Source: Methanococcoides alaskense
GTDB taxonomy: Archaea; Halobacteriota; Methanosarcinia; Methanosarcinales; Methanosarcinaceae
Length of the DNA stretch: 64,000 nt
Direction of reading: 5' to 3'
NCBI RefSeq assembly: GCF_027594145.1
Contig: NZ_JAQFFK010000005.1
Coordinates: 62,001 to 126,000, forward strand
Under the pieces are notes generated by a model. The model saw nothing but the letters and a program-made list of their open reading frames with translations, searched no databases and had not been told where the DNA came from. Positions 10,514-28,978 of this stretch are shown piece after piece. A program made the translations under genes and the position numbers. Within the stretch, counting starts at the first letter, position 1; each line of letters begins with the position of its first letter.

Positions 10514-10533
10514 TCCGCAAAACAAGCATATTT

Positions 10534-10843: not shown

Positions 10844-10876
10844 AATACTTAGAAGTATTAATGTATATTTATACAT
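10844..10876 (+). promoter_or_regulatory. Two adjacent palindromes upstream of the RHH-primase operon
   Basis: AATACTT-AG-AAGTATT (10844-10859) is followed at once by ATGTAT-ATTT-ATACAT (10861-10876). A TATA-like AAATATATATATC lies just upstream (about 10815-10827). Paired palindromes in front of a small ribbon-helix-helix gene are the usual arrangement for autoregulation. Confidence 0.5.
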
Positions 10877-10914
10877 AAACTTCTATAAATTAAATTTAAA
10901 AATGAGGTGAAAAA

Positions 10915-12835: not shown

Positions 12836-12874
12836 TAGAAGGCTCTTTTAACTGAAATATAAAAGTTGCATTGA

Positions 12875-12910
12875 GTTGATTCTATTTATTGGAATCAACT
12901 TTTTCTTTTT
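12875..12910 (+). terminator. Hairpin terminator after the primase gene
   Basis: GTTGATTC (12875-12882) and GAATCAAC (12892-12899) form a perfect 8-bp stem with a 9-base loop, followed by TTTTTCTTTTTT. Confidence 0.7.
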
Positions 12911-13348
12911 TGTTCCTTCTTATGTGGTTTACTTAAAAATTCGAAAATTACTTAAAATCTAAATAAAACCAACTTGTTTTTGACACTGTTTCTTATGCAA
13001 TTTAATTAAAAATAAGTTATTTTTGCTTAAAATATTAGTAAATCTAAAATCAATTTCGTGTGTAATTTATCATTCGATTTTCTCTAAAATCTGGAATAAA
13101 TGAAAATAAGTTTTTTTATATATTTGAATTCAATGCCTTACTCGAACATTGTCAGCTCTTATTAAGGTAATATTTGTTTTACAGACTTTTTTGGATATTT
13201 CCATAAATTTCAAGTAAAATGATATCAGTAAGCTATTTATTGGAAAATATTTTTAAGATAAATTTTGAGTAACTAATTTATCCCATATAATTTTTGAAAA
13301 TGAATATTTGAGTAAATTCCAATCAAATTTTAAGTTTCTTCAAAGTAA

Positions 13349-13482
13349 GGCTTTGTACAAATCCTCTATAATATATGTACCACATATAAAGGAAATATCG
13401 ATGTTCACCTGCTTTCATATGTAGTTAATCGATTCATCTACATTGCTCTAAATTCCTTGATATGAAGGATTTCTACAGAGCC
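13349..13482. mobile_element. MITE-like element (134 bp) sharing termini with the copies at 48.6 and 49.2 kb
   Basis: The left end GGCTTTGTACAAATCC and the right end GGATTTCTACAGAGCC are imperfect inverted repeats matching the termini GGCTCTGTAGAAATCC of the MITE at 49180-49311. Interior sequence differs from the other two copies. No clear target duplication flanks it. It has no coding capacity. Confidence 0.55.
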
Positions 13483-13539
13483 GTTTTTAATCAAAAAAGA
13501 AGCTTCAAACATAGTTGAATTGATGGGGAGAGAATTAAA

Positions 13540-13689
13540 ATGTATTGTAGATATTGTTCTGCTTTCACTGTATATTCTTCATATTTCAGAGGTTTAAATT
13601 CTGAAGCCTACTCCTTACCCTATCCACCACTCCACATCGTCGTACAAAGCATTCTGAGCATTCTGAGCCACTTACATAAAGAAGACTAA
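13540..13689 (+). CDS. Possible small CxxC protein, doubtful
   Basis: A 49-codon open frame begins MYCRYCSAF and has GGGGAGAG about 9 bases before its ATG, a reasonable ribosome site. Its codons show no convincing coding bias and I recognise no family. It sits in the 1.2-kb stretch between the primase and winged-helix genes that otherwise shows no gene. Confidence 0.2.
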   Translation: MYCRYCSAFTVYSSYFRGLNSEAYSLPYPPLHIVVQSILSILSHLHKED

Positions 13690-13699
13690 ACTTGCTTTT

Positions 13700-13860
13700 T
13701 GAATGGATTTTCAAAATTATGCAGGTAAATAGACACCTTCTTATCATAGCATTTTTTGGAAATTAAATAGCAAATTGACACCATCTACTTGTATGAATTT
13801 TCAAGACATTATTCCAGCTTTGGTTACCTAGGCATTTTTTGGAAAAGCTAAATACGGAAC
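13700..13860 (+). repeat. Imperfect direct repeats, possible replication or regulatory region
   Basis: Two units about 90 bases apart each contain a GAATTTTCAA-like segment followed some 45 bases later by GCATTTTTTGGAAA (13749-13762 and 13832-13845) and a TAAATA tail. The rest of 12911-13999 is AT-rich with no supported gene apart from the MITE and the doubtful small frame. Confidence 0.35.
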
Positions 13861-14018
13861 TTATGCAATTTGCATGTTCAATATTTATATTTTTTAAGAA
13901 AGTTTTATATTGTTTTGAAACATTCTAAATTATGTTGTCAGTGATTTAGACGCTGACAAACTTTCAAAATAGATATTTTTCATAAAATTTATCGACCCGT
14001 TTAAAGGTGATTATAATC

Positions 14019-15059
14019 ATGACTCAAAATTATCCTCCATTCATTGTAAAAAAATTAATATTGACCACGATACTAAATAACGAAAATTCCTATACTTCTG
14101 AAGCAATTTACGAAAAAAGCAACTATAGAGGCACATATAACTCTTTACGAAGCTTGTTGTATGATTATAAAAAGAGAGGCTATCTTGAAGTTATCAATAA
14201 AGGTAGACCTGCACTTTATTCTGTTACTTCACTTGGGAAGATGCATGCAGAGAACGAGTTTTTTGCAATCAATCGAAGAAGACGGAAAATTGAAGAAAAA
14301 GCTGTACTGATAGCAAATGCAATGCTTGAGGATTCAGATATTGTACAACAAAAAGCCTCAGAAATCGCAAATAGAATAAAAAGTGACAATGTAACTACTA
14401 TAATTAAGCAGGAAGATTCCAATATCTGTGACATAGGCAATGAAAGTAAACCGAAAGTCATTGAAAATAATAATGAATCTTCAGAACAGAGCTTGCCTGA
14501 CGGAAAAGATGGGATGATTGCAAAATTACGTGAAGAAATTGAATTCCTGGAAAGCAAGCCACCGGAAATTATCTACAGAAATGTATATGTATCAGCTGAA
14601 GATGAAAAACAACAACGAAATGATAAATCTGTAAACCGTGCGCCTTTAGCTCGTAGTTATAATGGAAAATTGTTGGATGATGTTTTTTTTGATGGTTTAG
14701 TTCATTATGGTCTTTACAAAAAACCAAAAGGTGCTTTGGAATTTATCCTCGGAAAAGATATTTTTATACTTCCTGTTACACAGGGCAACCCAAGTGTGAA
14801 ATTAGACCTCTTAGAAAAGATTACCGACAGGAAAGAAGTCCTCAGTTACAAACTCTTTATCAGCAACTACTTCTCGGATGGATTTATAATCAGTAGTAAA
14901 AACATTGAAGAGCTAGCGAGAATCCCTTATGGGTCTAAGTCAAAAGCATCTGAGCCAAAGAATTCGCAATCTCCTACTAGAAGACAAAAAGGAAGTCTAA
15001 AGTCAGATATAAGTACAGGAAAAAATTCAAAAGTAGTAATTAAACCACCCAAAAAATAA
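14019..15059 (+). CDS. Winged-helix DNA-binding protein of unknown role
   Basis: About 346 residues. The first 80 residues look like a winged helix: helices around ILTTILNNENSYTSEAIYE and YNSLRSLLYDYKKRGYLEV, then a wing GRPALYSVTSLGK. A basic helix RRRRKIEEKA follows, then a polar region and a C-terminal domain (about 210-310) that I do not recognise, and a Lys/Ser-rich tail. The start is ATG 14019, 8 bases after AAAGGTGA (14003-14010). The upstream GTG at 14007 lies inside that ribosome site. It may be an element regulator or partition-type adaptor; no function is assigned. Confidence 0.65.
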   Translation: MTQNYPPFIVKKLILTTILNNENSYTSEAIYEKSNYRGTYNSLRSLLYDYKKRGYLEVINKGRPALYSVTSLGKMHAENEFFAINRRRRKIEEKAVLIANAMLEDSDIVQQKASEIANRIKSDNVTTIIKQEDSNICDIGNESKPKVIENNNESSEQSLPDGKDGMIAKLREEIEFLESKPPEIIYRNVYVSAEDEKQQRNDKSVNRAPLARSYNGKLLDDVFFDGLVHYGLYKKPKGALEFILGKDIFILPVTQGNPSVKLDLLEKITDRKEVLSYKLFISNYFSDGFIISSKNIEELARIPYGSKSKASEPKNSQSPTRRQKGSLKSDISTGKNSKVVIKPPKK

Positions 15060-15229
15060 TGTTTCTGGAATTTCTTTGAGATATTACACTATATCAGAAA
15101 TTCCTTCACTGTTATCTTCATCTGTTTCATCCATTTCATATCTTGAATTCATGACTCTAACTTGTAACTAGGCAATATTAGGTCAAGTTACAATATGCTA
15201 GTCATAAATTATGATATGTTTTATCTTTC

Positions 15230-16201
15230 CTATAAATTCCAAAATGTTGAAATTTGCATGGATTCTCCCTTTAAAGAATCCCAATTTACTTTATTCCTAA
15301 CATACCCTGGAATATATTGTGCAATTTTAAATTTATCTTTAAAGCAGATATTTCTATTATTTGAAATAAATTTATTTTCGAAAATTCCCAAAATAAGAAG
15401 TGTCCTTAGTTGAGCTTCTTTATTACCCATATTTTCAGTACTACAGCACAAAATACTATTTACAGCATATAAATTTCCAACACTGCTTAGTATGTAACTA
15501 AGTAAACGTTCTCGCTCGGTACAATTTTTTCTTCTCAACCAAGTATTATATGATTTGAATTTCATCTTTTCGTTTTTAAAATTTTCACGTAATAAATCCA
15601 ATTCATCAGATGTAAATTCATTATCTGCTAGCAATGCATGCATAATTTTAAATTTATTCCTATCTATAATTTGATAATCGCTATCATGAGCGAGCTTACA
15701 AAGAACCGATTTATCGAATATAAATTTGAATTGCTCAAGTGAAGTCTCTTCAATAGCCCCATCAAAACTTATTGTAAACACCTTAAGCTTACCTAGTTTC
15801 ATATATTGATAAAACCAGTCCATATTAATCCGCGCCGTCTTAGCGAGATTAGTTTGCAGATAATCTAAATATGCAGAGTCAAAAAAGAATAAACACTGTT
15901 CATACCTTTCGATATTTTGTTTTAATTGCTTTTCTATCATTTGTTCAAAGTACGAATGACTTAATGCATATTTTTCTTTTTTGCGTGCTAGTACAGTACT
16001 TTGAATTTCTACGGGTAAATTTTCGCCAAGTACTACAAAGTCAACCTTATTAAATTCAGGTAATATTATAGAGTTAGGATATTCATTTTTCAAAAAATGT
16101 AAAATATAAGGCGAAACAACGTCAGCATTGTTCCAAAAAGTGTACTCAGCATCATTAAATGTTAATCTCGTTATACCATTATTTCTTTGCTCCCCTTTCA
16201 T
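15230..16201 (-). CDS. Uncharacterised protein with a possible PD-(D/E)XK nuclease core
   Basis: A 323-residue protein on the opposite strand to its neighbours. The segment VDFVVLGENLPVEIQS (D54, E65, Q67) fits the D-x(n)-E-x-Q form of the PD-(D/E)XK restriction-nuclease core, with hydrophobic strands in the right places. This rests on pattern only. A later all-helical region (about 190-290) is unrecognised. GGGGGTAA lies about 6 bases before the ATG. It may be a solitary endonuclease or defence effector. The gene is divergent from the serine recombinase, with 315 bases between them. Confidence 0.55.
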   Translation of the reverse strand: MKGEQRNNGITRLTFNDAEYTFWNNADVVSPYILHFLKNEYPNSIILPEFNKVDFVVLGENLPVEIQSTVLARKKEKYALSHSYFEQMIEKQLKQNIERYEQCLFFFDSAYLDYLQTNLAKTARINMDWFYQYMKLGKLKVFTISFDGAIEETSLEQFKFIFDKSVLCKLAHDSDYQIIDRNKFKIMHALLADNEFTSDELDLLRENFKNEKMKFKSYNTWLRRKNCTERERLLSYILSSVGNLYAVNSILCCSTENMGNKEAQLRTLLILGIFENKFISNNRNICFKDKFKIAQYIPGYVRNKVNWDSLKGESMQISTFWNL

Positions 16202-16516
16202 GTATAATTACCCCCTTAAACCAATTTTGTTCACATGTCGTGTCCATTAACATCTTTTAAAATGGGTTCATTGTAATGTTTCACCTCATTGATATTAAGC
16301 TTATCGGAGGGTAAATAGAGCTTCTTTTGTTCTCAATTCCAATTTCTATTCTCAATTTCTAAATTGAGTATCTAAAAAGTCATAAAATTGCGTATTTTTG
16401 TTTTAAAAGCATTTTTTCATTCGATAAGTTTCAGCTTTTTAATATTACAAACAAAATATATATATACATTTAGAAATATATAATCTTCTTGAAAATAAAA
16501 AAAGAGTTGATTTAAA
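16202..16516. promoter_or_regulatory. Divergent intergenic region with TATA box for the serine recombinase
   Basis: The 315-base gap contains a TATA-like run (AAAATATATATATAC, about 16454-16467) some 50 bases before the recombinase ATG. No gene is visible in it. Confidence 0.4.
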
Positions 16517-17149
16517 ATGAAAAATAATATTATAAAAAAAGCTGGGCTTTACATTAGAACTTCGACAGACAATCAGCAGGATTCGATACAATTGCAAAGA
16601 CAAGAACTCCGAAATTATTGTCAATCAAAAGGTTGGGTCGTTCATGAAGATTATGTCGATTTTGGTTTCAGTGGAAAAAACACAGAACGCCCTGCATTTC
16701 AAAATATGATGCGAGATGCAAAGGAAGGTAAATTTGACATTTTGCTAGTTACTAAAATTGACCGATTTGCCAGGTCTATAATCGACTGTCTTGTCAATGT
16801 TGAGAAATTGGAATCATACAGTGTATCATTTGCAGCTACTGGTCAGCCAATCGATACGTCATCTGCTATGGGTAAACTCACATTGCAGATTATGGCTTCC
16901 TTTGCGGAATTTGAACGTTCAATCATTAATGAAAGAATGACAGCTGGGCGAAAGGCTGCGGAGAAAAGGGGTGTAGTGTGCCATCGACCAAGAAAAGATA
17001 TTCCAAAAAAGAAGCTTGAAGAACTTGTTGGAAAAGGATTGTCAGCAAATGCTTGTGGAAAATTCTTTGAAGTTACAACTTCGACTATAACTCATAGATT
17101 GGTAGAGTATGGTTACGTGTATGAAAATGGAAAATGGGTAGAAAAATAA
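16517..17149 (+). CDS. Serine recombinase (resolvase/invertase family)
   Basis: A 210-residue protein. The N-terminal resolvase domain has AGLYIRTSTDNQ (catalytic Ser about residue 14), SIQLQRQEL, and LLVTKIDRFARS with the conserved Arg pair. It then shows a GKLTLQIMASFAEFER helix and ER..AGRKAA, followed by a short helix-turn-helix of the Hin type. It could resolve multimers, invert DNA or aid integration of the element. A second recombinase of a different class (integrase at 9188) lies in the same island. Confidence 0.92.
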   Translation: MKNNIIKKAGLYIRTSTDNQQDSIQLQRQELRNYCQSKGWVVHEDYVDFGFSGKNTERPAFQNMMRDAKEGKFDILLVTKIDRFARSIIDCLVNVEKLESYSVSFAATGQPIDTSSAMGKLTLQIMASFAEFERSIINERMTAGRKAAEKRGVVCHRPRKDIPKKKLEELVGKGLSANACGKFFEVTTSTITHRLVEYGYVYENGKWVEK

Positions 17150-17383
17150 TATACAAATTAAATATATTATGTATATTACATTTCGAAAATACTCTTAATA
17201 ATGCAATTTGAACAAATAATAAAGGACTAAAATGTTTTCTATATATGTTGAAAATATCAGTTACAAGATTTTTAAAATTTATTATTATATTCAATGCCTT
17301 AAATTAATCCAAAATAGACCCGTTAATAGATTTCAACGATACTTTTACAGAAACAAATTATTCCTTCATCCCAAGGTGCAAAA

Positions 17384-17549
17384 ATAGTACTTACCCTCAA
17401 CGAACTAAGCACCCATTTATTAAAGGCAGCAGACATCCTGCGAAGCTCTATTGACAGTTCCGAATAACAAGCAGTACATATTTGGTCTTCTCTTCCTGAA
17501 GCGTCTATCTGACCAATTTGATGAGAATGCGAAGAAAAGGATTTGTTGA
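17384..17549 (+). pseudogene. hsdM: Fragment of type I restriction methyltransferase subunit (hsdM start)
   Basis: A translated stretch reads LTLNELSTHLLKAADILR SSIDSSE, then after a one-base shift (about 17465) KQYIFGLLFLKRLSDQFDEN. This is the conserved N-terminal signature of HsdM, the DNA adenine methyltransferase subunit of type I restriction systems. The frame ends at a TGA at 17547. The catalytic NPPF motif and everything after are missing, so the gene is dead. It marks the left edge of an older type I locus; its codons look more like backbone genes than those of the cassette that follows. The remaining gap (17150-17383 and 17550-17868) shows no gene. Confidence 0.7.
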
Positions 17550-17868
17550 AAATGAATGAAGCACAGTTTCTATTGTACGTATTATGCAAGGATTATATCG
17601 GATATTGAAAAAGATTTGATTGAACAGCATGTGGAGAGTTTGATGGGAGTTTGAAGAAGATAGATTTCCATCCACCTGATTTAATCTTTTATGCTTGTTA
17701 TCAAATTTAGAATATTCTGATACATGAAACATTTTAATATATTTAAACTGCTAATTATTTATACAACTATTGCCATTATTTAATAAATTTTAGAATTTAT
17801 GGCAAGAGTTTGATGCATATATGGATTTTATCTTAAATTTATAAAAAAATAAAATGTGGTAGAAGTAA

Positions 17869-20643
17869 ATGAATAGTCTCTCTTTGACATCACAACAACA
17901 AGAAGCTATCAAGTATGTAGATAGTCCACTATTAATTATTGCAGGCCCTGGAACTGGAAAAACAAGAGTTCTTACAGAAAAAGTAATTTTTCTCGTTAAA
18001 GAAGGATATGACCCTAATAGAATAATTGTCAGTACATTTACCATCAAAGCAGCAGAAGAACTTAAAGACAGATTACGTAAAAGTTTAGGTGATGCTGTAG
18101 AAAACATGCAAATTTCCACAATTCATTCGTTCTGTCAAAAAATGCTTCAATCTTTTCCGGAATATCATAATTTTGGTAATATTTTCGAAGTAATGGATGA
18201 TTTAGACCAGTTTATCTTTGTAAATAAGAATTTTTGGAATTATGGATTAAAAGATTATGCAAAGGACATTAAAGTTGCTGAGCTTATAAACTTTTATAAT
18301 AAATGTACTGAAAATGATGTTGACCCAGTAAAACTTATAAACTACTGCAAAACAAACAATCTGGATAGTTTTAAAAAAGCAATTGCAAAAAGTTACCAGA
18401 TATATCTGGGGAATATTCTTGACCCAAATAATACAAGGCTTGATTTTGCACTTCTTCAAAGAGAATTCTATCATTTGCTTCAACAAAGTCCAGACGTTTT
18501 GCAGATTGTAAGAGATTCTCACGACTACATACTAATTGATGAGTACCAAGATACAAATCCAATCCAAGATGCTATTTTCAAGCTTATAAGTGAACCAAAA
18601 TTTAATATTACTGTTGTGGGTGATGAAGACCAGAGTTTGTACAGTTTTCGAGGGGCATCAATCAAGAATTTTAGAACATTCCTCGACAGATATCCCAATG
18701 CAAAAAAATTGGTATTGGAAGAGAACTTCAGGTCAAATAAAGAGATAGTGTCTATGTTTGACGACTTTATGAAACCTCACAGAAAATTTAAAAAGAACAT
18801 ATTTACAAATAATCCAACTTTTTCAAAGCCAATATACATAACTGGAGACTCAAAGCAGTCTGAAGCTGAAAATATTGTTCAATTCATAAAAAGTGTGGTC
18901 AAGAATAATAACATCAAATATGAAGACATAGCCATACTTTTCAAAAGTGTAAAATTTCATTCATCATCTATTGTCGATGAACTTGAAAAAGAAAAGATTA
19001 CATATATAGTAAAAGGAGATGGCTCACTCTTAGTACAAGATGAAGTTAAAGATTTGTTAATACTAATGGTATACATCAATTCACATATTCCAAACAAATA
19101 TCAGAAAGAAAAGTATTTTGACAACAATATTCTTTATTCTAAATTTTTGGATTTGAAAGAAGACACAATTACAAAATTAAATCCAAAAATTGATATTTAC
19201 AATCTTCTTGAGTCTTTTGACTATGATGAATTACAACGCTTAAATATTGACAACGAAGATTCTGATAAACTAATGGCTTTGAGGAATCTTAAATTTCAAC
19301 AAACAAGAAATCCTATTAGTCAATTAAAGCTGTTTTATAAAATAATGGACGCAACTGGCTACCATTACAGATTATTCAAGAAATATCTAAAAGATAGAGA
19401 CGAAACTGCAAATATGGCTATAAAGAATCTGGCCAAATTTTCAACTCTTATCTACAAATTCGAAGAAAATACGCATTCTAAACAGTTCAAATCTCTACTT
19501 TATCAAATTGGGACAATACCAGAAAACAAAATTGATGATGCTGCATCCTTTGAAAATATTAATGCAGTAAACCTAATGACTGTGCATCAAGCCAAAGGTC
19601 TTGAATTTCCTGTAGTGATTATGGCAGGTGTCACAAATAGGAGATATAATACGATAAATAATCGTGAAACAATTATAATGGATATACCAAAGGAATTAAT
19701 GCTCGATAAAAATGACTACAATCGAGGGGAAGAAATAAGGAGAATATTTTATGTTGGAGTATCAAGAGCACAAAAACTGTTGGCCATAAGTACGATTGAT
19801 GGACCTGGGAGTCATCCATCTAAATTCATTGATGAAATTGGGCAGAGTAACTTTATTAAATTAAACGATTTTAATAAAAAATTCACAGATAAAGACCATT
19901 ATGAGCCTATAAAGGGTAAAACGAAATTAAGTTATTCTTCTGTAAGTGCATATATTGATTGCCCTTTTAGATTTTATTGTAGGGATTTTCTTGGATTCCA
20001 GACTCCAACAGATTACTATCAAGCATACGGTGTAATTGTTCATAATTCTCTTAAAAAACTACATGTTCTCATCAAAGAGGGAAAAGAAATTGATATACAA
20101 GATATCATCTCAATAGTTGACCTATATTGTAAAGATGATGATTCTCGAACTAAATGGCGTGATGAACTCATCACAGATTTATGGACTTACTATGAAAATA
20201 CTGATAACTTTTTGACTGAAGTTCTTGATATAGAACTTCCCTTCTCGTACATTAACAAAGACCTTTTAATAAGTGGTCAGGCAGATTTAGTTATCAAGAA
20301 CGAAAATAATGAAATTGAGTTGATAGATTACAAATCCAGATATAAAGAAGGTCTTGGAAGAATGAATGTGGATATTCAACTGCGACTTTATAATATTGCA
20401 CTTCAATATAAATATGATGAAGAAATTAAAAACATCAGTGCTTATACATTCAAGGATAATGAACGAACACGATTTATGAATACAGAAGAAGACCTTGAAA
20501 AAACCAAGACTTTGGTAACTTCAATTGCTGAATCAATTGATAATAAAGATTTTGGAAGAAACTGGCAAGGAACTTCTTGTAATAATAAAACTGGAAAATG
20601 TGAATTTTACCATATTTGTGATGGACTTGAAGGGGGTAACTAA
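17869..20643 (+). CDS. UvrD/Rep-type superfamily 1 helicase with C-terminal RecB/Cas4-like nuclease
   Basis: A 924-residue protein. SF1A helicase motifs are clear: Walker A AGPGTGKT (K31), motif II DEYQDTN (about residue 224), GDEDQSLYSFRGA, LEENFRS, MTVHQAKGLEFP and YVGVSRAQKLL. From about residue 690 a PD-(D/E)XK nuclease domain follows with CPFRFYC, GQADLVI, ELIDYKS and QLRLY motifs, and the last cysteines (Cx6Cx5C) suggest an AddB/Cas4-like Fe-S cluster. It is an AddA-like single-chain helicase-nuclease. It is followed 1 base later by the methyltransferase gene, so it is the first gene of a three-gene operon. Confidence 0.88.
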   Translation: MNSLSLTSQQQEAIKYVDSPLLIIAGPGTGKTRVLTEKVIFLVKEGYDPNRIIVSTFTIKAAEELKDRLRKSLGDAVENMQISTIHSFCQKMLQSFPEYHNFGNIFEVMDDLDQFIFVNKNFWNYGLKDYAKDIKVAELINFYNKCTENDVDPVKLINYCKTNNLDSFKKAIAKSYQIYLGNILDPNNTRLDFALLQREFYHLLQQSPDVLQIVRDSHDYILIDEYQDTNPIQDAIFKLISEPKFNITVVGDEDQSLYSFRGASIKNFRTFLDRYPNAKKLVLEENFRSNKEIVSMFDDFMKPHRKFKKNIFTNNPTFSKPIYITGDSKQSEAENIVQFIKSVVKNNNIKYEDIAILFKSVKFHSSSIVDELEKEKITYIVKGDGSLLVQDEVKDLLILMVYINSHIPNKYQKEKYFDNNILYSKFLDLKEDTITKLNPKIDIYNLLESFDYDELQRLNIDNEDSDKLMALRNLKFQQTRNPISQLKLFYKIMDATGYHYRLFKKYLKDRDETANMAIKNLAKFSTLIYKFEENTHSKQFKSLLYQIGTIPENKIDDAASFENINAVNLMTVHQAKGLEFPVVIMAGVTNRRYNTINNRETIIMDIPKELMLDKNDYNRGEEIRRIFYVGVSRAQKLLAISTIDGPGSHPSKFIDEIGQSNFIKLNDFNKKFTDKDHYEPIKGKTKLSYSSVSAYIDCPFRFYCRDFLGFQTPTDYYQAYGVIVHNSLKKLHVLIKEGKEIDIQDIISIVDLYCKDDDSRTKWRDELITDLWTYYENTDNFLTEVLDIELPFSYINKDLLISGQADLVIKNENNEIELIDYKSRYKEGLGRMNVDIQLRLYNIALQYKYDEEIKNISAYTFKDNERTRFMNTEEDLEKTKTLVTSIAESIDNKDFGRNWQGTSCNNKTGKCEFYHICDGLEGGN

Positions 20644-20644
20644 A

Positions 20645-21820
20645 ATGGTGGATGAAAAATTGATTGATACTAGTGCTGATAAGCTTAAATTACTGTTAAA
20701 GGATTTGTTCCAATTCGAGAACAATGACCTTGATTTTGGAATATACAGAATCATTAACATCAAGAAAAAAGAAATATCTGAGTTTATTAACAAAGACCTT
20801 TTTGAAATTATAAATGAAAAAATCAAAACGGTTGGAGATAATTCAGAATTAAAATCCAATCTAGAAGCATTGAAGACAGTGATTGAATCTGATTTTGGAT
20901 GCGAAATTCTAGAAGCAAAACAGAAGTATGCAGAACTTCCAAAAGTGCAATCTTATCTTGAAAAAGAAAAAGAAATGAATCAGGTTGACAAAGAAAATGA
21001 TATCGAAGAAGAAATCTATGATGATATAATTAGTTTCTTTTCAAGATATTATGACAAGGGCGATTTCATCTCCAAAAGAAGATATTCTAAAGATGCAAAG
21101 TATGCAATTCCTTACAATGGTGAAGAAGTCTATCTGCATTGGGCAAATAACGACCAGTATTACATCAAAACTGGTGAAAACTTCAATAATTATTCATTTA
21201 AGGCTAATGCAATCAAAGTTGATTTTGAAGTAACTAGTGAAGAAGTTGATATTGAAAAAAACAATATTAAAGATTCTGAGAATAAATTTTTCATATTCAA
21301 TGAGGCAGAGTATGATAGCAGAACTAAACATCTCAACGTAACGTTTGGATATCGTGGTTTAACGGGTGAAGAGGAAAACATAATCAAAGACATCACTAGC
21401 AAAAAAAGAATAGGAAAGGATGAAGTAAATCAGCACAATTTGATACAAATTAATGAAAGAATTGCTATTTATGGTTTATCTGATTTACAGAAAAAACACA
21501 TGAAAATGGATGGGGAGAAGTCTGAAAAATCAGAACTTGAATGGCATCTTAATAAATACTCCACTAAGAACACAAGTGATTATTTTATTCATAAAGACCT
21601 GAAAAAATTCCTAAATCAAGAATTAGATTTCTATATCAAAAATGAAATCCTTCACATTGATGATATTGATTCAAAAGATGATTTTGATGTCAATTTGCGA
21701 AAAATAAAAGTTTTCAAAGAAATATCTCTTAAAATTATTGAGTTCCTTGCTCAGGTTGAAGAATTCCAAAAAAAGCTCTGGGAAAAAAGAAGTTTGTCCT
21801 TTCAACTGATTATTGTGTAA
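20645..21820 (+). CDS. Type III-like DNA methyltransferase, N-terminal part (before a -1 frameshift)
   Basis: About 390 residues to the frame stop, with ATG 20645 preceded by GAAGGGGGT. The LDFGIYRIINIKKKEI start is typical of large Mod-type adenine methyltransferases. The in-frame coding homology ends at TGG GAA AAA around 21787; after that this frame adds only a short tail. The correct protein continues in the -1 frame (from AAG at 21787) through the methyltransferase at 22054-23664. Joined, they would give about 1006 residues. Treat the two as one gene with a frameshift or as a programmed -1 site. Confidence 0.75.
   Translation: MVDEKLIDTSADKLKLLLKDLFQFENNDLDFGIYRIINIKKKEISEFINKDLFEIINEKIKTVGDNSELKSNLEALKTVIESDFGCEILEAKQKYAELPKVQSYLEKEKEMNQVDKENDIEEEIYDDIISFFSRYYDKGDFISKRRYSKDAKYAIPYNGEEVYLHWANNDQYYIKTGENFNNYSFKANAIKVDFEVTSEEVDIEKNNIKDSENKFFIFNEAEYDSRTKHLNVTFGYRGLTGEEENIIKDITSKKRIGKDEVNQHNLIQINERIAIYGLSDLQKKHMKMDGEKSEKSELEWHLNKYSTKNTSDYFIHKDLKKFLNQELDFYIKNEILHIDDIDSKDDFDVNLRKIKVFKEISLKIIEFLAQVEEFQKKLWEKRSLSFQLIIV
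21783..21789 (+). other. A6G run at the methyltransferase frameshift
   Basis: AAAAAAG stands exactly where the reading frame must move by -1. It is both a classic slippery heptamer composition and a homopolymer prone to sequencing indels. One extra A would restore the frame. I see no strong downstream pseudoknot. Confidence 0.6.
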
Positions 21821-22053
21821 CACTGGATTATATCGATGAGAAATATTATCCTGAGATACTTAAAAATGAGAAACAGCTTGAAGAATGGAATTATCTCTAC
21901 TCTTTTGATATCAAAACAGAAGTCAAGAAGCTCAACGAAAAAATCACAGTAGTAGGAAAAGGGGATGAAGAACAGAAGATAGAGCTTCTCAAACAAAACC
22001 CAACACTTGTAATTGATACAAGATTCTATAATATTGATTTTAAATATCAAATT

Positions 22054-23664
22054 TTGAGTGAAATAGATAATCTCGATGAAAAAACAACTGGAATTCTCAT
22101 TAACTCTGAGAATTTCCAAGCATTAAACTTGTTACTCAACAAATACAAAAATAAAATCAAATGTTGTTACATAGACCCACCTTATAATACGGGAGGGGAT
22201 GGCTTCATTTATAAGGATGGTTTTTCACATAGTAGTTGGCTTTGTCTTCTGGAAAATCGCTTGTTATTTATGCGAGATATGCTTAAAAAAGATGGATTGT
22301 TTTTTACAAGCATTGATGATAATGAGAAAAACAACTTGAAATTACTATGTGATGCAGTTCTTGGTCGAAATAATGAAATAGCTACAATCATTTGGCAGAA
22401 AGTATACAGCCCAAAGAATCAATCAAGATATTTATCAATTGACCATGAGTATATATTAGCATACTCTAAAGATATTGCTTATGCAAATATTAAGCTATTA
22501 CCAAGAACGGAAGAGATGAATAATAGATATAAAAATCCTGATAATGACCCCAGAGGCCTTTGGAAAGCTGGTGATTTAGTAGCGAATGAAGAAAGAACGA
22601 ATGGTCATTACATAATTAAAGGTCCAAAAGGAGATGAATTTGATGCACCACCAGGCAAACATTGGGCATTTGCAAAAGAAAAAATGATGGAGTTATTGAA
22701 AGATAATAGATTATACTTTGGTAAAAATGACAAATCTATACCGAGTATTAAACAGTTTTTAAGTGAGGTTCAGCAAGGTAGAAAGGGTTCAACACTGTTC
22801 TTGCATAAAGAGGTTGGACACACTGATGAAGCAAAAAAAGAACTTAAACGAATATTTCCACAATCCACTGATTTATTTCCTACAGTAAAGCCTACAAGAC
22901 TAATAAGTCAACTTATAAGATTGGTAGAAGGAGATGACATATATATATTAGACTTCTTTGCAGGTTCAGGAACAACAGGCATTTCAACTCTCAAAATAAA
23001 TAAAACAGATAAATCTAATCGTAAATTCATTTTAGTTGATATGGAACCCTCATTTTCTTCTGTTCTTAAACCCAGAATATTAAGATTCGTTTATTCACAT
23101 AATTGGAAAGATAGCAAACCACAAGATAACAATGGTTCCAAGAAACAAATTATCAAATATCAGACACTTGAGCAATATGAAGATTCTTTGAACAACATTG
23201 ATTTCAAAGAACCTACCACTTTGGCCAAAGAATCTAAAGATTACAATATTAAATACATGCTTGAATTTGAAAGCAAAGGAAGCAATGTTTTCCTTAATCT
23301 GGATGCATTAGATAATCCTTTTGAGTATAAACTCAAAACATATGATAATAATGAATTCAGGGAACATAATGTTGATTTGATTGAAACCTTCAACTATATT
23401 GCTGGGATTGACGTTAAATCAATTCAAAGAAAACTAGATGATAATGAAGTATACCTAATCGTCAAAGGTTACAGAAAAGACAAAGCTGTTATTATAATCT
23501 GGAGAAATAGGGCCGATGGTTTTGAACCTGTAAGAGACAAAGAATTCATTGAAAACAATATTCTGAATGAAGAATATGATGAAATTCTTATCAATGGCAA
23601 CTCATTGATAGAGAATGCTAAATCAATAGATGAAATCTTTAAAACAAATATGTTCAGGGGATAA
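22054..23664 (+). CDS. Type III-like DNA adenine methyltransferase, catalytic part
   Basis: Motif IV DPPYNT is at residue 41 of this frame and motif I FAGSGTTG near residue 300. The order IV before I defines the beta class of amino-methyltransferases (N6-adenine or N4-cytosine), as in Mod subunits of type III systems. An insert between them would carry target recognition. The frame is open upstream to about 21787 and the first in-frame start (ATG 22054) is probably not the true one. A stop-to-start gap of 3 bases links it to the helicase-nuclease that follows. It would protect host DNA from that enzyme. Confidence 0.85.
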   Translation: MSEIDNLDEKTTGILINSENFQALNLLLNKYKNKIKCCYIDPPYNTGGDGFIYKDGFSHSSWLCLLENRLLFMRDMLKKDGLFFTSIDDNEKNNLKLLCDAVLGRNNEIATIIWQKVYSPKNQSRYLSIDHEYILAYSKDIAYANIKLLPRTEEMNNRYKNPDNDPRGLWKAGDLVANEERTNGHYIIKGPKGDEFDAPPGKHWAFAKEKMMELLKDNRLYFGKNDKSIPSIKQFLSEVQQGRKGSTLFLHKEVGHTDEAKKELKRIFPQSTDLFPTVKPTRLISQLIRLVEGDDIYILDFFAGSGTTGISTLKINKTDKSNRKFILVDMEPSFSSVLKPRILRFVYSHNWKDSKPQDNNGSKKQIIKYQTLEQYEDSLNNIDFKEPTTLAKESKDYNIKYMLEFESKGSNVFLNLDALDNPFEYKLKTYDNNEFREHNVDLIETFNYIAGIDVKSIQRKLDDNEVYLIVKGYRKDKAVIIIWRNRADGFEPVRDKEFIENNILNEEYDEILINGNSLIENAKSIDEIFKTNMFRG

Positions 23665-23667
23665 ACA

Positions 23668-26600
23668 ATGGCCAAAGTTCAGAGAAAACTTCAGAATTAT
23701 CTAATTCTGAATAAATACATGTCCTCAATGTTTGGATTTAGAGATATGAAAGAATTCAGTGCATTGTTAAAACCTATTCCAGATGGACTAAATTATCACA
23801 AGAAATTGCATTTTACTGAAGTATTACAAAATTTAAAAATTACTGATGAATTCAGACAGAAACTCAATCTATATGATGAAAACATCCAGGAATATTTGAA
23901 CCACATAAACCAAAAAAGAGACCCACCAATTGTATTGAAATATTTCCAATACATGGCAATTCTGTTTACAGAAATATACCTTGATAAATACTACAATGAG
24001 TTCAATTCATTGTATTCAGAGTTTCTTACATTTGTAATGGCTCTAAATAAAAAAGAGAACAGCAAATATCCATATCCTAATAAAAAAGCCATGCAAAAAT
24101 TGGCATTCTGGTCTGCAACTGGTAGTGGGAAAACACTTTTGATGCATATTAACTTTTTACAGGTTCAAAGGTATAATAATAAAAAGTATGATAATTTTTT
24201 GCTTATTACTCCTAGTGAAGGGCTTTCCACACAACACATGGATGAACTTTTATTAAGTGATATAGAGCACAAAAAGTTTGAAACACAAAAGACGCTTGAA
24301 GATTGGTCTTTAAAGAATCCACTAAAGGTCATAGAAATCACCAAGATTAAAAGTGAAGTCAGTTCTCAAGATGGGAAAACAATTCCAGTTGAAGCTTTTG
24401 AAGATGATAATATTATTTTCGTAGATGAAGGGCATAAAGGCCATTCCACTGATGCTCAGACTTGGAAGAACATGAGAAAAGAGCTTGTTGGTAAGAATGG
24501 ATTCACTTTTGAATATAGTGCCACATTTGGTGAAATTATCGACAAGGATGAGACTTTCAACGAATATGCTTCTTCGATAATATTTGATTACCGCTACAAA
24601 TACTTCTATGAAGATGGGTTTGGAAAAGATTACAGTATACTTAATTTGCATAATAAAGAAGATTACGGCGATGAATATTTTACGGGTTCATTACTCTCAT
24701 TATATGAACAAAAAGTTTATTTCAAGAACTATGGCCGACAAATCAAGCCATTCAATCTTGAAAATCCTCTGATGATTTTTGTAGGCTCGAGTGTTAGTGG
24801 AAAAGCAAAAGAATCAGACGTTCTTCAAGTGGTTAAATTTTTAGCAAGGTTCGTAAATGAGAAAAAGAACTTCAAAGAATTAATTCAAAATATACTTACT
24901 GATAAATCAAGCCTTGTTGACACAAATGACCAGCCAGTATTTGCAACAAAATTTCCATACCTGAGACGTTTGAACAAAATCGACAAAATAGAGATTCATG
25001 AAATATATGAAGATATTCTTAAGGTCTTATTTCATGTCAAGACATCTAAAACATTGCAATTTGTTGAGATTAAAAATGCAGATGGAGAAATTGGGTTAAA
25101 ATTTGACTCGGAGTATTTTGGAGTCATAAATATTGGAGATACGAGTTCTTTCATGAAACTCATTGATAAAGAGGAAGAAGATTACTTCTTTATTGCTCAA
25201 AAATCTAATTTTGAACAATCTTTATTTAAGAAAATTGAAAAGAAAAACTCACCAGTCAATTTCTTAATTGGTTCTAAAAAATTTATTGAAGGATGGAATT
25301 CTTACAGAGTTTCAGCAATGGGTCTTTTGAATATTGGGAAAAAAGAAGGTTCTCAGATAATTCAATTATTTGGACGAGGTGTCCGGCTTAAAGGATATGA
25401 AAATTACTTGAAAAGAAGCTCTGCACCTGAATTCAAAAATGGTATGTTAGCAGATGTTAAAATTCCCGATTATTTGGAACTTCTTGAAACGTTGAATATT
25501 TTTGGATTAAATGCAAATTACATGGAAACATTCAAAAAATCATTGAAAGAAGAAGGAATTGGAGAGTATGAGAGACTAACTCTTAAAATTAAACCAACAA
25601 TGCCTGTTAGTGCTCTTTATGTTCCAAGAAGTACAAAGGATGAAAGTGATTTTACTAAATCTATACAGATAACAAATTTCGATAAATCTATTGCAAAAAT
25701 TAAAATAGATTTAAGTTCAAAGATTGATGTTCTTGAATCAAGAGAAGATATCAAGCAAGTAGATTCGAGTTCTCCTATTAAAGAAAATACATTTAGTTCA
25801 GAACTGGTTGATTTGTTTGATATGGATTATATTTATCTTGAATTGCTTAAATATAAGGATTTAAAAAAATATACAAATTTATATTTTATCAAAGATGATT
25901 TGAGCAGTGTTCTTTATTCTCCAGATAAATATTCTGTTTTGTGCAAAAAAGAAATAATACAACTAAATGAAACTGATGAATTACAGAAAATTCAAAAGCT
26001 TCAAGACTATGCGATACAGTTGCTTAAATCTTATTTGGATAAGCTCTATAATCATGAAAAATATCATTGGTATCAAGAAAATTTACAATATGAAACTGTT
26101 AGTCAGGAAGATGAGTCTTTAATTCCAAAAGAGTACGTATTCACAATTAATTCAGATGCTGACACTTTGATTAAAGATATAGACAAATTTACTAGTGATT
26201 TAACAAGTTTCATAAGAGTAAACTCTGAAGATGGAAATATAATGTATGAAGAAGATATTTCCTTCAAACATGGTATGTCTAATATCATGGATTTTTTCGC
26301 AATGAATGTTCACTTATTTAAGCCATTGATATACAAGAATGTTAAAGCAAAGGACCTTGAATTTATAAAAATATCTCCAGTTAATTTAGTTGAAAGTGAA
26401 AGAGATTTTATAAAGCAATTGAATCTGTATTTAGAAAATGATTCGAAAGCATTAGGGTTCGATGAAATATATTTATTAAGGAATCCTTCAAGGAAAGGTA
26501 TTGGCTTTTTCGAAACTAAAAATTTCTATCCCGATTTCATACTATGGACCATAAAAGGGGATGAACAAACAATCAATTTCATAGACCCTAAAGGACTTGT

Positions 26601-26838
26601 GAGGGTGGACCATCATGATGAGAAAATTGGCCTTTACAAAGAAATAAAACATATTGAAACAGATTTAAAAAAGAAATCAAAACTGAACATTAATCTTAAT
26701 TCATTTATTTTGTCTCGTACAAATTATTCAGACCTTAATTGGTCCGAAAGTAAGGATGAATTGATGGATAAGAATATCCTGTTCTTGGAAGATGGGGCTG
26801 ATTTCTTAAAGCAGATGTTTGAAAAGATAAGCTCTTGA
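23668..26838 (+). CDS. Type III restriction Res-like DEAD/DEAH helicase with C-terminal nuclease
   Basis: A 1056-residue protein. SF2 helicase motifs are Walker A ATGSGKT (K155), motif II DEGHKG (about residue 254), SATF, and a late QLFGRGVRLKG motif VI typical of Res subunits. Near the C-terminus FYPDFILW followed by INFIDPKGL fits a PD-(D/E)XK endonuclease. Res proteins cut DNA after ATP-dependent translocation when the cognate methylation is missing. Directly after the methyltransferase and in the same operon as the UvrD-like enzyme, it is probably the cutting subunit of a composite restriction system. Confidence 0.87.
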   Translation: MAKVQRKLQNYLILNKYMSSMFGFRDMKEFSALLKPIPDGLNYHKKLHFTEVLQNLKITDEFRQKLNLYDENIQEYLNHINQKRDPPIVLKYFQYMAILFTEIYLDKYYNEFNSLYSEFLTFVMALNKKENSKYPYPNKKAMQKLAFWSATGSGKTLLMHINFLQVQRYNNKKYDNFLLITPSEGLSTQHMDELLLSDIEHKKFETQKTLEDWSLKNPLKVIEITKIKSEVSSQDGKTIPVEAFEDDNIIFVDEGHKGHSTDAQTWKNMRKELVGKNGFTFEYSATFGEIIDKDETFNEYASSIIFDYRYKYFYEDGFGKDYSILNLHNKEDYGDEYFTGSLLSLYEQKVYFKNYGRQIKPFNLENPLMIFVGSSVSGKAKESDVLQVVKFLARFVNEKKNFKELIQNILTDKSSLVDTNDQPVFATKFPYLRRLNKIDKIEIHEIYEDILKVLFHVKTSKTLQFVEIKNADGEIGLKFDSEYFGVINIGDTSSFMKLIDKEEEDYFFIAQKSNFEQSLFKKIEKKNSPVNFLIGSKKFIEGWNSYRVSAMGLLNIGKKEGSQIIQLFGRGVRLKGYENYLKRSSAPEFKNGMLADVKIPDYLELLETLNIFGLNANYMETFKKSLKEEGIGEYERLTLKIKPTMPVSALYVPRSTKDESDFTKSIQITNFDKSIAKIKIDLSSKIDVLESREDIKQVDSSSPIKENTFSSELVDLFDMDYIYLELLKYKDLKKYTNLYFIKDDLSSVLYSPDKYSVLCKKEIIQLNETDELQKIQKLQDYAIQLLKSYLDKLYNHEKYHWYQENLQYETVSQEDESLIPKEYVFTINSDADTLIKDIDKFTSDLTSFIRVNSEDGNIMYEEDISFKHGMSNIMDFFAMNVHLFKPLIYKNVKAKDLEFIKISPVNLVESERDFIKQLNLYLENDSKALGFDEIYLLRNPSRKGIGFFETKNFYPDFILWTIKGDEQTINFIDPKGLVRVDHHDEKIGLYKEIKHIETDLKKKSKLNINLNSFILSRTNYSDLNWSESKDELMDKNILFLEDGADFLKQMFEKISS

Positions 26839-26885
26839 GGGGGCTATTTTTTCATCATAATGTTTATTTTTTAAAATAACGTTAT

Positions 26886-27026
26886 TACGTAGTGATTCAT
26901 GAGCTGTGTCACCTGAATCATAAGAACCATTCAAAAGAGTATTGGGATTCCATAAAGACCATCTTGCCTGATTACGAGCAGAGGAAAGAATGGTTGCGGG
27001 TTAATGGTAAGCTGTTGAATGTTTGA
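26886..27026 (+). pseudogene. 3' fragment of a YgjP/DUF45-like metallopeptidase gene
   Basis: An open reading stretch translates as YVVIHELCHLNHKNHSKEYW and continues to a WLRVNGKLLNV ending at a TGA (27024-27026). HELCH plus the second histidine NHS and the WLR.NG tail are signatures of the YgjP-like (M48-related, DUF45) zinc peptidases often encoded next to type I restriction genes. The first two thirds of the gene are gone. No start codon is present. It faces the same way as the hsdM fragment at 17384 and may be the other end of the same lost locus. Confidence 0.65.
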
Positions 27027-27122
27027 TGGATGTGGCCTTGGAATTTTTATATCAAGTTTGTTTATCTTTAAAACATACATATATTTAATTAAATGTATTG
27101 AGGATTTCAATTTGGTGATGTA

Positions 27123-28319
27123 ATGGGTTCAGATGAGGAGGAAATAAATGAAATTTTTGGAAAGATGGCATGGCTTGATAAAAATAGATGGTTATCTGAA
27201 CCGGATGATAACAATCCAAATCTCATTAATTTCTCATCAAGCGATTTGAAGAATTCTGAAAAAATTCTGACTCATTTTTTATGCTACATTAGTGACAGAC
27301 AAATGCCTTTTTCTCAAATATGGGATAAAGGTGGATTCGTATATTCAGATATTGTTCATTCCTATTCTCAAAAGGATTGTGTGACTACAAATTTGTTAAA
27401 TCCATTTAATGAAAATAGTTTTATCCATCGAAGGAAGGATGACGGTACAAAATTTGAACTTATTTCAAATGACGGTTCTGTAACATTTACTCCCAGATAT
27501 TATCCATCTGATATCAAATCAATTCTTCAAACTTTAATGATACTTGAAGAAAAAGAATACAACAAAGACATAATTCAGTTCATTGCAAGAATTATTAGTG
27601 AATTTGATGGTGATTTTTTAGTTAAAAGAATAGGTTTTGCATTACATCTTTTGGCATACTACAATATCGGGCAACCCAAAGCTTCTGAGTATGAAAAATA
27701 TGAAGAAATGCTAAAAAAGATTGAAAAAAATAAATCTGAAGTTTTGGGAATTCTTAGAAACAAGGATAAGTTTGAAGAGAAGTTCGAAGATTTTAAGAAA
27801 AATAAGAACGGTATTCTTTTCAATCAAAAAAGAATGTGGTGTAGTTTGCGTGATTACATAAAATATGATGAAACCTGCAATTATATGATTAACGGTTTAA
27901 AGGACATCAAAGAAGATAGTTTAGTTGAAACGTGGAATAATTTAGATAGAACCGAATTGGAATTGCCAGGTGATGTTTGGAACAATAACTCTAAATTTAG
28001 AAAATGCTTGTTTAAAAACATCTCCATGTTATCTAGTTTGAATAAATACGAATCCCCTCGTTTCATACGAGAAATCTATACTAAATTGAAATCTGAGATT
28101 GATGAAGGTTATCCTGAATCATTTGATGTTACTTTTGATTTTGTTCCGAGAATGTGTGAAAAAGGAATGTGTGATTTTTGTATCTTCAATGAAAATAACA
28201 AAATTGATGAATTATGCACAAAAGACAAATCAAAATATTGTCCTATACTGCTGGTTTCTTGCGGTTATAAAAATAAATGTAATCCAAAAGAATGTGTTGC
28301 TATCTTGGCTGATGATTAA
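27123..28319 (+). CDS. Uncharacterised protein with Cys-rich C-terminal domain
   Basis: A 398-residue protein I do not recognise. The first 300 residues are mostly helical with many acidic and lysine residues. The last 70 contain about ten cysteines in pairs (MCEKGMCDFC, LCTKDKSKYC, SCGYKNKCNPKEC), which suggests metal or Fe-S binding, reminiscent of zinc-binding or Fe-S tails. GGTGAT lies 4 bases before the ATG. Its codon use and AT content match the restriction cassette upstream, but the decayed metallopeptidase separates them. It may be an accessory defence gene; that is only positional inference. Confidence 0.6.
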   Translation: MGSDEEEINEIFGKMAWLDKNRWLSEPDDNNPNLINFSSSDLKNSEKILTHFLCYISDRQMPFSQIWDKGGFVYSDIVHSYSQKDCVTTNLLNPFNENSFIHRRKDDGTKFELISNDGSVTFTPRYYPSDIKSILQTLMILEEKEYNKDIIQFIARIISEFDGDFLVKRIGFALHLLAYYNIGQPKASEYEKYEEMLKKIEKNKSEVLGILRNKDKFEEKFEDFKKNKNGILFNQKRMWCSLRDYIKYDETCNYMINGLKDIKEDSLVETWNNLDRTELELPGDVWNNNSKFRKCLFKNISMLSSLNKYESPRFIREIYTKLKSEIDEGYPESFDVTFDFVPRMCEKGMCDFCIFNENNKIDELCTKDKSKYCPILLVSCGYKNKCNPKECVAILADD

Positions 28320-28350
28320 TCATAAACTTTTCAAGTTTTTTAATACAACA

Positions 28351-28563
28351 TCACCATTCAATAGTAGCTGAACCACCAGAGTTCTTGCCACCTTTACAAT
28401 ATCCAGTAGATTTGCCGCAATTTGTGCATTTTCTTCCGTTTCTGTGAAGCATACCACTAACAATGAAAGTATTGCCACATAATAAACATTTAAAGGCGGC
28501 ATTATTTCCTATCCAATCTTCTTCAGGGCTAAGATTATTTGGGTCTATATTTTTTGTTGCCAT
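28351..28563 (-). CDS. Small zinc-ribbon protein
   Basis: A 70-residue protein with a clear four-cysteine zinc ribbon: CLLCGNTF (residues about 26-33) and CTNCGKSTGYC (about 46-56), followed by a Gly/Ser-rich tail. It is convergent with the Cys-rich protein gene. Such proteins are common in archaea and bind nucleic acid or protein partners. No specific role is assigned. Confidence 0.6.
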   Translation of the reverse strand: MATKNIDPNNLSPEEDWIGNNAAFKCLLCGNTFIVSGMLHRNGRKCTNCGKSTGYCKGGKNSGGSATIEW

Positions 28564-28978
28564 GTTATTTACTCTATTTAATTATCAAATAACTAAGCAT
28601 CTTCTGCACAACACGGGTAGCATACCCTTCCTTATAATATTTCAACAAGCAGTAATCAATGATAGCTCAATGATATAAAGTATCGGCATAAGCTATATGG
28701 TGTGTATTCATTTTCTTCTTAGATGGACTCGATGTACAATAAGACGATAAAAAGCAATAAATGAGCCCTTATTTTATTGCTGTGATGGGCTTATTTCGCT
28801 TGTTGAGTGGTGAAATTTAGTCAATAGCTTCATCTATTATTATGTTATATGATATGTTGTTAGCAAATTATAAATAGAAATAGCCAGTTTAGAAAATAAA
28901 TTATTGGTTGTAATTGTGAAGATGTAACCTTAGCTTTAATAGTAACAATTACAATGATAGCATCGTAATTTTGAAAGA
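28564..28978. other. Non-coding AT-rich stretch before tRNA-Arg
   Basis: No gene, recombination site or convincing repeat is seen in these 415 bases. A weak inverted repeat built on GAGCCC/GGGCTT occurs around 28760-28795. The change from AT-rich island to backbone composition happens here. Confidence 0.4.

What the first reader, a model, noticed from the sequence alone, without database searches (positions are those of the whole stretch)
17384..27026. Restriction cassette that appears to have replaced the middle of an older type I locus
The sequence shows an hsdM N-terminal fragment (17384-17549) on the left and the 3' end of a YgjP/DUF45-like zinc peptidase gene (26886-27026) on the right. 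Both are on the plus strand and broken at the side facing the cassette. In known type I loci this peptidase family often lies next to hsdR. The inferred event is that a 9-kb helicase/methyltransferase/Res cassette replaced hsdM-hsdS-hsdR and left both ends.
Basis: partly seen in the sequence, partly recalled or inferred. Interest (0 to 1): 0.7.

Follow-up and report, generated by a model that had tools for sequence, protein, structure and literature searches.

The report
Type III cassette in type I ruin
A three-gene DNA-restriction cassette in a methane-making archaeon sits between the two broken ends of an older restriction operon, showing one defence system standing where another was lost, which is ordinary turnover seen unusually clearly.

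Summary
Window 17384-17537 is the head of hsdM (codons 1-51; start codon lost, one frameshift); 26884-27026 is the tail of a YgjP peptidase gene. Both are broken towards the cassette. A congener, G008, has an intact hsdM-hsdS-hsdR-ygjP operon elsewhere; matches to its ends run past both genes (75 bp upstream, 47 bp downstream). The fragments share that operon's G+C (40% against 30-31% in the cassette) and its pattern of divergence, so they are very probably the two ends of one operon.

The cassette (UvrD/Cas4-like helicase-nuclease, Mod, Res) occurs without hsdM or ygjP in another genus and is a published type III arrangement.

Corrections. (1) No congener has an intact type I block here. The locus lies in an island bordered by a 14-bp direct repeat; of 10 congeners, 5 have an empty site, 2 hold about 2 kb of other DNA, 1 has the same cassette, 2 are unresolved. 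(2) A two-ended scar without a cassette exists in a related genus, so scar-first and one-step replacement are both open. (3) The left junction also holds an integrase tail. mod is one base short in the window; G008's copy is intact.

The parts
9079..28945 (.). Integrated island that holds the locus, bordered by a 14-bp direct repeat AGCTTTAATAGTAA (9079-9092 and 28932-28945)
   Evidence: Repeat: (four overlapping 11-base words). Aligned chromosome blocks end at ~9033-9088 or a little before and restart at ~28932, with 160-296 bp between them in G001, G003, G004, G006, G007, 1748 bp in G009 and 2114 bp in G010
9188..10513 (+). Tyrosine integrase, 441 aa, likely integrase of the island
   Evidence: PF00589 E 4.5e-9, PF16795 archaeal phage integrase E 5e-6, just under its cut-off
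11072..12835 (+). D5-like primase/helicase of the island
   Evidence: PF19263, PF08706
16517..17149 (+). Serine recombinase, 210 aa
   Evidence: PF00239 E 1e-44; an 83% identical copy lies near another type III locus in G004
17309..17383 (+). Upstream region of the lost type I operon
   Evidence: DNA match to the 75 bp before hsdM in G008:C4
17384..17537 (+). hsdM head, codons 1-51, pseudogene (ATA for ATG, one-base insertion)
   Evidence: tblastn E 9e-16; 90% DNA identity to G008:C4
17580..17654 (+). 3' tail of a 221-aa tyrosine-integrase gene, between hsdM head and cassette
   Evidence: tblastn codons 196-218, 61%, E 0.001; 69 bp alignable to the G003 int
17869..20643 (+). UvrD helicase fused to Cas4/AddB-like PD-(D/E)XK nuclease, 924 aa
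   Evidence: PF00580, PF13361, PF12705; GPGTGKT, DEYQD, ELIDYK and C-terminal Cys 904/911/917
20645..21820 (+). Type III mod, 5' part, cut short by a one-base deletion at about 21787
   Evidence: PADLOC MTase_III E 6e-70; alignment to the intact G008 copy
22054..23664 (+). Type III mod, 3' part as an ORF, with DPPY and FAGSGT
   Evidence: PF01555 E 5e-37; PADLOC MTase_III; motifs
22191..22944 (+). Stretch of mod with no blastn match to G008; probable target-recognition region
   Evidence: blastn blocks break at 22190/22945 against G008 and 22239/22945 against G015
23668..26838 (+). Type III res, 1056 aa, open
   Evidence: PADLOC REase_III E 7e-154; PF04851; ATGSGKT, DEGH, YPDF, FIDPK
26884..27026 (+). 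ygjP tail, codons ~193-239 and stop, pseudogene
   Evidence: tblastn 83%, E 6e-23; 79% DNA identity to G008:C4
27027..27073 (+). Downstream flank of the lost type I operon
   Evidence: DNA match continues 47 bp past the ygjP stop

Best explanation
The locus is the scar of a type I operon of the Methanosarcinaceae kind hsdM-hsdS-hsdR-ygjP. About 6 kb of its middle (from hsdM codon 51 to ygjP codon 193) is gone, and a low-G+C type III cassette (UvrD/Cas4 helicase-nuclease, Mod, Res), which I take to be horizontally acquired, stands in the gap. Shown: the identity, order and orientation of the two ends and their fit to one operon; that the cassette occurs elsewhere without them; the same structure in a second genome; and an island setting. 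Inferred: that loss and insertion are linked, by illegitimate recombination, since the one comparison of the joints found no repeat beyond single A/T-rich words. Inferred function (established type III biochemistry, recalled): Mod methylates one strand at an asymmetric site, Mod-Res cuts DNA with unmodified sites, and the UvrD/Cas4 protein unwinds and degrades the ends. In the window genome mod is one base short; if that is real, Mod and hence restriction are off there.
For: Intact operon in G008 at L016 4869-11308. Matches to both ends extend outside the genes and then stop. G+C: head 40.4%, tail 39.9%, intact operon 38.8%; UvrD, Mod and Res 30.7, 30.5 and 30.1%. Divergence: hsdM head 90.2% and ygjP tail 78.7% to G008, while the intact G008 and G077 operons differ in the same way, 82.4% and 72.3%; of the six intact operons compared, G008 and then G077 is closest for both pieces. 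The cassette alone is in G015 (UvrD 66%, Res 72%, DNA match from 17893 to 26838 in three blocks) with no hsdM or ygjP hit in 20 kb. The same scar is in G008. Another decayed copy: own contig 3 has hsdS tail - OLD - ygjP tail, against intact hsdM-hsdS-OLD-hsdR-ygjP in G077.
Against: No intact block at this site in any of 10 congeners, 2 of them unresolved. The integrase tail in the left junction means at least one further rearrangement. The fragments are short (51 and 46 codons). Type I and type III loci share neighbours: a relative (65-66%) of the gene after ygjP in G008:C4 lies beside the type III cassette in G353 and G455, so chance meeting in a defence island is not excluded. The window genome is 76.6% complete, so an intact copy elsewhere in it could be missing.
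Confidence: 0.82

Rival explanations
1. Sub-case A, scar first: the type I operon collapsed by an internal deletion that joined hsdM head to ygjP tail, and the type III cassette later inserted at or near that joint.
For: G091 has such a joint without a cassette: hsdM codons 5-112 (degraded) run into ygjP codon ~201. Its joint lies at an 11-base word, CATTTGAAGCA, that I read in both hsdM and ygjP of the intact G077 operon of the same genus. ygjP tails without a head occur at 13 places in 11 of 111 genomes.
Against: The cassette would have to land close to the joint: res ends 45 bp before the ygjP tail. The window break points (codons 51 and 193) are not those of G091.
Confidence: 0.4
2. Sub-case B, one-step replacement: one exchange removed the middle of the operon and brought the cassette in.
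For: Needs the fewest events for the two joints; the right joint is tight (45 bp).
Against: No shared repeat at the joints beyond one direct and one inverted A/T-rich 10-base word. The integrase tail and 42 unplaced bases at the left joint. No intact block at this site.
Confidence: 0.42
3. The two fragments come from two different type I loci and meet here by chance accretion in a defence island.
For: The island is patchy: G008 has a CBASS-like pair inserted 5' of the hsdM head and about 15.9 kb more between window 15035 and 16419. Own contig 3 has two further ygjP tails.
Against: Order, strand, flanking sequence, G+C and divergence all fit one operon.
Confidence: 0.1
4. The peptidase tail belongs to the cassette, not to the type I operon.
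For: It lies 45 bp after res on the same strand.
Against: 0 of 14 other Res loci gave a YgjP hit; 8 of 11 full-length relatives follow hsdR.
Confidence: 0.02

Closest known systems
UvrD-Cas4 fusion beside type III Mod/Res (Phylogenomics of Cas4 family nucleases, PMC5704561; passages read)
   Same: Same domain fusion (UvrD + pfam12705) and the same neighbours; the paper calls this the most common neighbourhood of the fusion and sees it as part of defence systems
   Different: Here the cassette stands between two type I remnants and mod is one base short in one genome; the passages seen do not mention such a setting
Type I operon hsdM-hsdS-hsdR-ygjP of Methanosarcinaceae (intact in G008:C4, G111, G112, G109; with OLD in G077)
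   Same: The two fragments match its two ends, 90% (hsdM head) and 79% (ygjP tail) in DNA to G008
   Different: hsdS, hsdR and most of hsdM and ygjP are missing
Replacement of restriction-modification by another defence system (A. baumannii, R-M by Ssp, PMC12421847; abstract and outline seen)
   Same: Turnover of one innate modification-based defence for another
   Different: Its abstract reports which genomes have which system; here the break points are visible in one locus
Archaeal R-M survey (PMC10609329; passages read)
   Same: Type I systems dense in Methanosarcina (more than four per genome); type III prevalent among Methanomicrobia
   Different: Its main text has no 'Methanococcoides' and no word beginning 'fragment'

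Membership tests
Type III restriction-modification system | Mod with N6/N4 methylase motifs (DPPY before FxGxG) | tested here: met
   PF01555 E 5e-37 and PADLOC MTase_III; DPPY at 41 and FAGSGT at 302 of the 3' part
Type III restriction-modification system | Res with SF2 helicase motifs and a C-terminal PD-(D/E)XK nuclease | tested here: met
   PADLOC REase_III E 7e-154; ATGSGKT, DEGH, YPDF...FIDPK. Reading the last pair as the nuclease motif is recalled knowledge; no nuclease domain was called by Pfam
Type III restriction-modification system | mod and res adjacent, mod first, both readable | tested here: not met
   Order met; mod is one base short and split in the window but readable throughout in G008
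Type III restriction-modification system | Strand-specific methylation and cleavage at two unmodified sites | not testable with these tools
   needs methylome or biochemistry
UvrD-Cas4 / type III cassette of PMC5704561 | UvrD helicase fused to pfam12705 nuclease, next to mod and res | tested here: met
   PF00580+PF13361+PF12705, directly before mod. Among 14 other Res loci, at tblastn E 1e-4: 6 have UvrD directly before mod (G015, G082, G004, G329, G353, G455), 1 has it with one ORF between (G249), 7 do not (in G158 UvrD-like pieces lie about 5 kb off on the other strand; in G236 no mod hit either)
Type I operon remnant (hsdM-hsdS-hsdR-ygjP) | Both outer ends of one operon, same strand, with outer flanks | tested here: met
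Type I operon remnant (hsdM-hsdS-hsdR-ygjP) | Intact operon at the same chromosomal place in a relative | tested here: not met
   0 of 10 congeners; 2 of the 10 (G002, G005) not resolvable
Phase-variable mod | Length-variable simple repeat in the reading frame | tested here: inconclusive
   The missing base lies in GGGAAAAAAGAAG; G008 reads GGGAAAAGATGAAG there. Six A are too few to call; a base-calling error is possible

The most novel reading that the evidence does not exclude
The ygjP end of this type I operon is a preferred anchor for exchange of defence cassettes in Methanosarcinaceae: heads and middles are swapped again and again while the last 30-140 codons of ygjP stay as a fixed right border, perhaps with the help of the 221-aa integrase or the serine recombinase whose genes or fragments recur beside some of these scars.
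Probability: 0.08. Interest if true: 0.6.

Novelty: new member of a known kind. Interest (0 to 1): 0.33.

Why it matters
Defence systems are known to turn over quickly, but this is mostly inferred from presence and absence (recalled; one example is PMC12421847, abstract). Here both break points of a lost system are still readable around its successor, and several other stages of decay of the same operon exist in related genomes (intact, hsdR lost, two-ended scar, tail only). That makes the order of loss and gain testable with more Methanococcoides genomes.

Tried and rejected
Considered and rejected: that ygjP belongs to the cassette (0 of 14 Res loci); a transposon-like cassette with terminal repeats or target duplication (10-base word comparison of 17301-17900 with 26801-27130 gave one direct and one inverted A/T-rich match). 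The island as a whole is another matter: the repeat finder looked at each island end on its own and found nothing useful, but a comparison of the two ends gave a 14-bp direct repeat at the borders; its chance expectation was not computed.

A tRNA as the island's attachment site: find_trnas gave only tRNA-Leu at 3840; Rfam at gathering threshold on 8000-30000 gave nothing; permissive Rfam on 28850-29160 gave only a lncRNA match at E 0.73. In G009 the stretch beside the right border looks to me like an intron-bearing tRNA; that is by eye and no tool called it.

The excess of tail-only over head-only ygjP fragments (13 places in 11 genomes against 1, G009:C77) comes from the listed part; that table was cut at its weak end, and two weaker tails (G022:C75 at 43%, G119:C293 at 48%) and one weaker head (G011:C151 at 29%) were left out. 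The 13 are not independent: window and G008:C11 are one locus, and G020, G060, G061 and G033 share one site; by eye about 8-9 events. A simple reason would be that deletions running out of the operon into downstream host genes are purged; not tested.

The 11 full-length YgjP relatives were picked by an identity cut (44% or more); more distant full-length ones (36% and below) were not used, although at least one of them, G009:C118, also follows an hsdR.

Open: whether the missing base in mod is real. The window genome has 6 contigs and 76.6% completeness, so sequencing error cannot be excluded.

Literature: six searches. Three papers were opened: PMC5704561 and PMC10609329 (passages only) and PMC12421847 (abstract and outline). 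By title and start of abstract, none of the papers listed (15, 15 and 3 rows) is about this event; that is a statement about these listings only.
Full report
Observation. The hsdM head and the ygjP tail are real, at the stated places, on the plus strand and broken on the inner side. The hsdM head has lost its ATG (ATA) and carries one extra A, so it is a pseudogene. Chance is not a reasonable explanation: tblastn E-values in a search of the window and fetched loci are 9e-16 and 6e-23, and the DNA matches run 75 bp before hsdM and 47 bp after ygjP into the outer flanks of an intact operon.

The intact operon. G008, a genome of the same genus, carries hsdM-hsdS-hsdR-ygjP in a row on another contig (C4; L016 4869-11308), with Pfam support for each gene. 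G008's contig 11 has the length (106416) of JAIORD010000044.1, Methanococcoides sp. SMBSF09, returned by a scan with the window Res, so I take the window to be Methanococcoides (inference). Among 111 family genomes 11 full-length YgjP relatives have 44% identity or more: 8 have hsdR within 0.35 kb upstream (G008, G077, G103, G109, G111, G112, G123, G024; in G103 hsdR is in several frames), G068 keeps only an hsdR tail, and G074 and G015 have none. In G077 an OLD-family gene lies between hsdS and hsdR.

One operon, two ends. Six intact operons were compared with the window. For both fragments the nearest is G008's, then G077's. The head is about ten points more conserved than the tail between window and G008 (90.2 and 78.7%) and also between the intact operons of G008 and G077 (82.4 and 72.3%). 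G+C is 40.4% in the head, 39.9% in the tail and 38.8% in the intact operon, but 30.7, 30.5 and 30.1% in UvrD, Mod and Res. These tests agree with one source operon; on pieces this short they do not prove it.

The cassette. UvrD+PD-(D/E)XK (924 aa), Mod and Res (1056 aa). In G015, of another genus, the same three genes (UvrD 66%, Res 72%; mod interrupted by an ORF that occurs twice in the stretch and looks transposon-like by eye) align in three blocks from window 17893 to 26838, the stop of res, and no hsdM or ygjP hit is in the 20 kb fetched. G015's ygjP lies about 860 kb away. Of 392 phylum genomes 14 besides the window's own have a Res match at 1e-60; in the stretches fetched around these 14, none gave a YgjP hit or a hit to the clade HsdM head at E 1e-4; 6 have UvrD directly before mod and 1 with an ORF between. 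In two of them (G353, G455) the neighbour is a relative of the gene that follows ygjP in G008:C4, a sign that both kinds of system use the same neighbourhoods. The UvrD-Cas4/Mod/Res arrangement is described in PMC5704561 (passages).

The place. Flanking chromosome (window 1 to ~9033-9088 and from 28932) is contiguous with 160-296 bp between aligned blocks in G001, G003, G004, G006 and G007, with 1748 bp in G009 and 2114 bp in G010. G008 has the same island plus extra DNA. G002's contig ends there and G005 has another neighbour. The island is bordered by a 14-bp direct repeat, AGCTTTAATAGTAA, at 9079-9092 and 28932-28945, which I read as its attachment core or target duplication. A panel search of the stretches fetched around this site (L091-L102) found no type I gene at E 1e-4. 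So the island, with its integrase and primase, came in from outside, and the type I operon was lost either inside the island or before the island reached this site.

Other ruins of the same operon. In the window's own genome, contig 3 holds an hsdS tail (codons 391-418), an OLD gene and a ygjP tail (codons 166-239), which is the end of the G077 order without hsdR, and a third ygjP tail (codons 208-239). G091 holds degraded hsdM codons 5-112 joined to ygjP from codon ~201, with no cassette; the joint coincides with an 11-base word that I read in both hsdM and ygjP of G077. At one site of the genera g7 and g11, beside a 268-aa gene that I take for the start of the trp operon (by eye), G111, G112 and G123 have the operon (G123 cut by its contig end) where G020, G060, G061, G033, G120 and G102 have only tails. 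G083 has a ygjP tail about 80 bp from an integrase tail. A close full-length HsdM was not found in the window genome (the best match is 30%), which is 76.6% complete.

The left joint. After the hsdM head come 42 unplaced bases and the last codons of a 221-aa tyrosine integrase (17580-17654), whose intact relative lies 1.9 kb upstream of hsdM in G008:C4. In G008's copy of the locus a CD-NTase-like and a Cap15-like gene (PF18144, PF18153) lie between the serine recombinase and the hsdM head. The left side has therefore been rearranged more than once.

Order of events. Loss before gain and one-step replacement both fit; I give them nearly equal weight. Nothing at the joints (10-base word comparison) points to a recombinase.

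State of the cassette. Mod in the window lacks one base relative to G008 (GGGAAAAAAGAAG against GGGAAAAGATGAAG) and so ends at 21820; G008's mod is readable to its stop. Res of type III needs Mod to cut (PMC10609329 passage), so the deletion, if real, should silence restriction without harm to the cell (inference). The stretch 22191-22944 of mod has no blastn match to G008 while its flanks are 92-96% identical, and it breaks the match to G015 too, as expected of a swapped recognition region.

Verdict.

Noticed in passing
window 21780-21795: mod of the type III cassette is one base short of the intact G008 copy; real deletion or base-calling error is undecided.
   Followed up: partly
window 22191-22944: Probable Mod target-recognition region has no match between two otherwise near-identical loci (G000, G008), a likely specificity swap.
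   Followed up: partly
window 9079-9092 and 28932-28945: 14-bp direct repeat AGCTTTAATAGTAA at the borders of the island, a likely attachment core.
   Followed up: partly
L014 2983-4472 (G008): CBASS-like pair (SMODS-type nucleotidyltransferase and Cap15-like receptor) between the serine recombinase and the hsdM head.
   Followed up: partly
L015 11291-16340 (own genome, contig 3): Two ygjP tails flank a 675-aa gene, a 110-aa ORF, an hsdS tail and an OLD gene, beside a second type I operon of another class.
   Followed up: partly
window 16419-20101: 98.6-99.8% identical to G008 while the mod 5' part is 92% and the chromosome beyond is 94-96%: a recent exchange or stronger constraint.
   Followed up: no
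L124, L125, L127, L129: In four archaeal genomes the type III cassette is followed by a similar row of ORFs: 281-293 aa (adenine-methylase-like by eye), 665-721 aa and about 440 aa (cut in L127), possibly a larger defence cluster.
   Followed up: no
L075 9408-10173 (G004): A serine recombinase 83% identical to the window's, with an integrase tail about 60 bp after it (match placed on L075), lies near a different type III locus.
   Followed up: no
window 28932-29082: Conserved spot at the right border of the island whose G009 counterpart looks by eye like an intron-bearing tRNA; ARAGORN and Rfam did not call it.
   Followed up: partly
window 27123-28319: 398-aa protein with a Cys-rich C terminus, no Pfam or PADLOC match at 0.001, shared with G008.
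   Followed up: no
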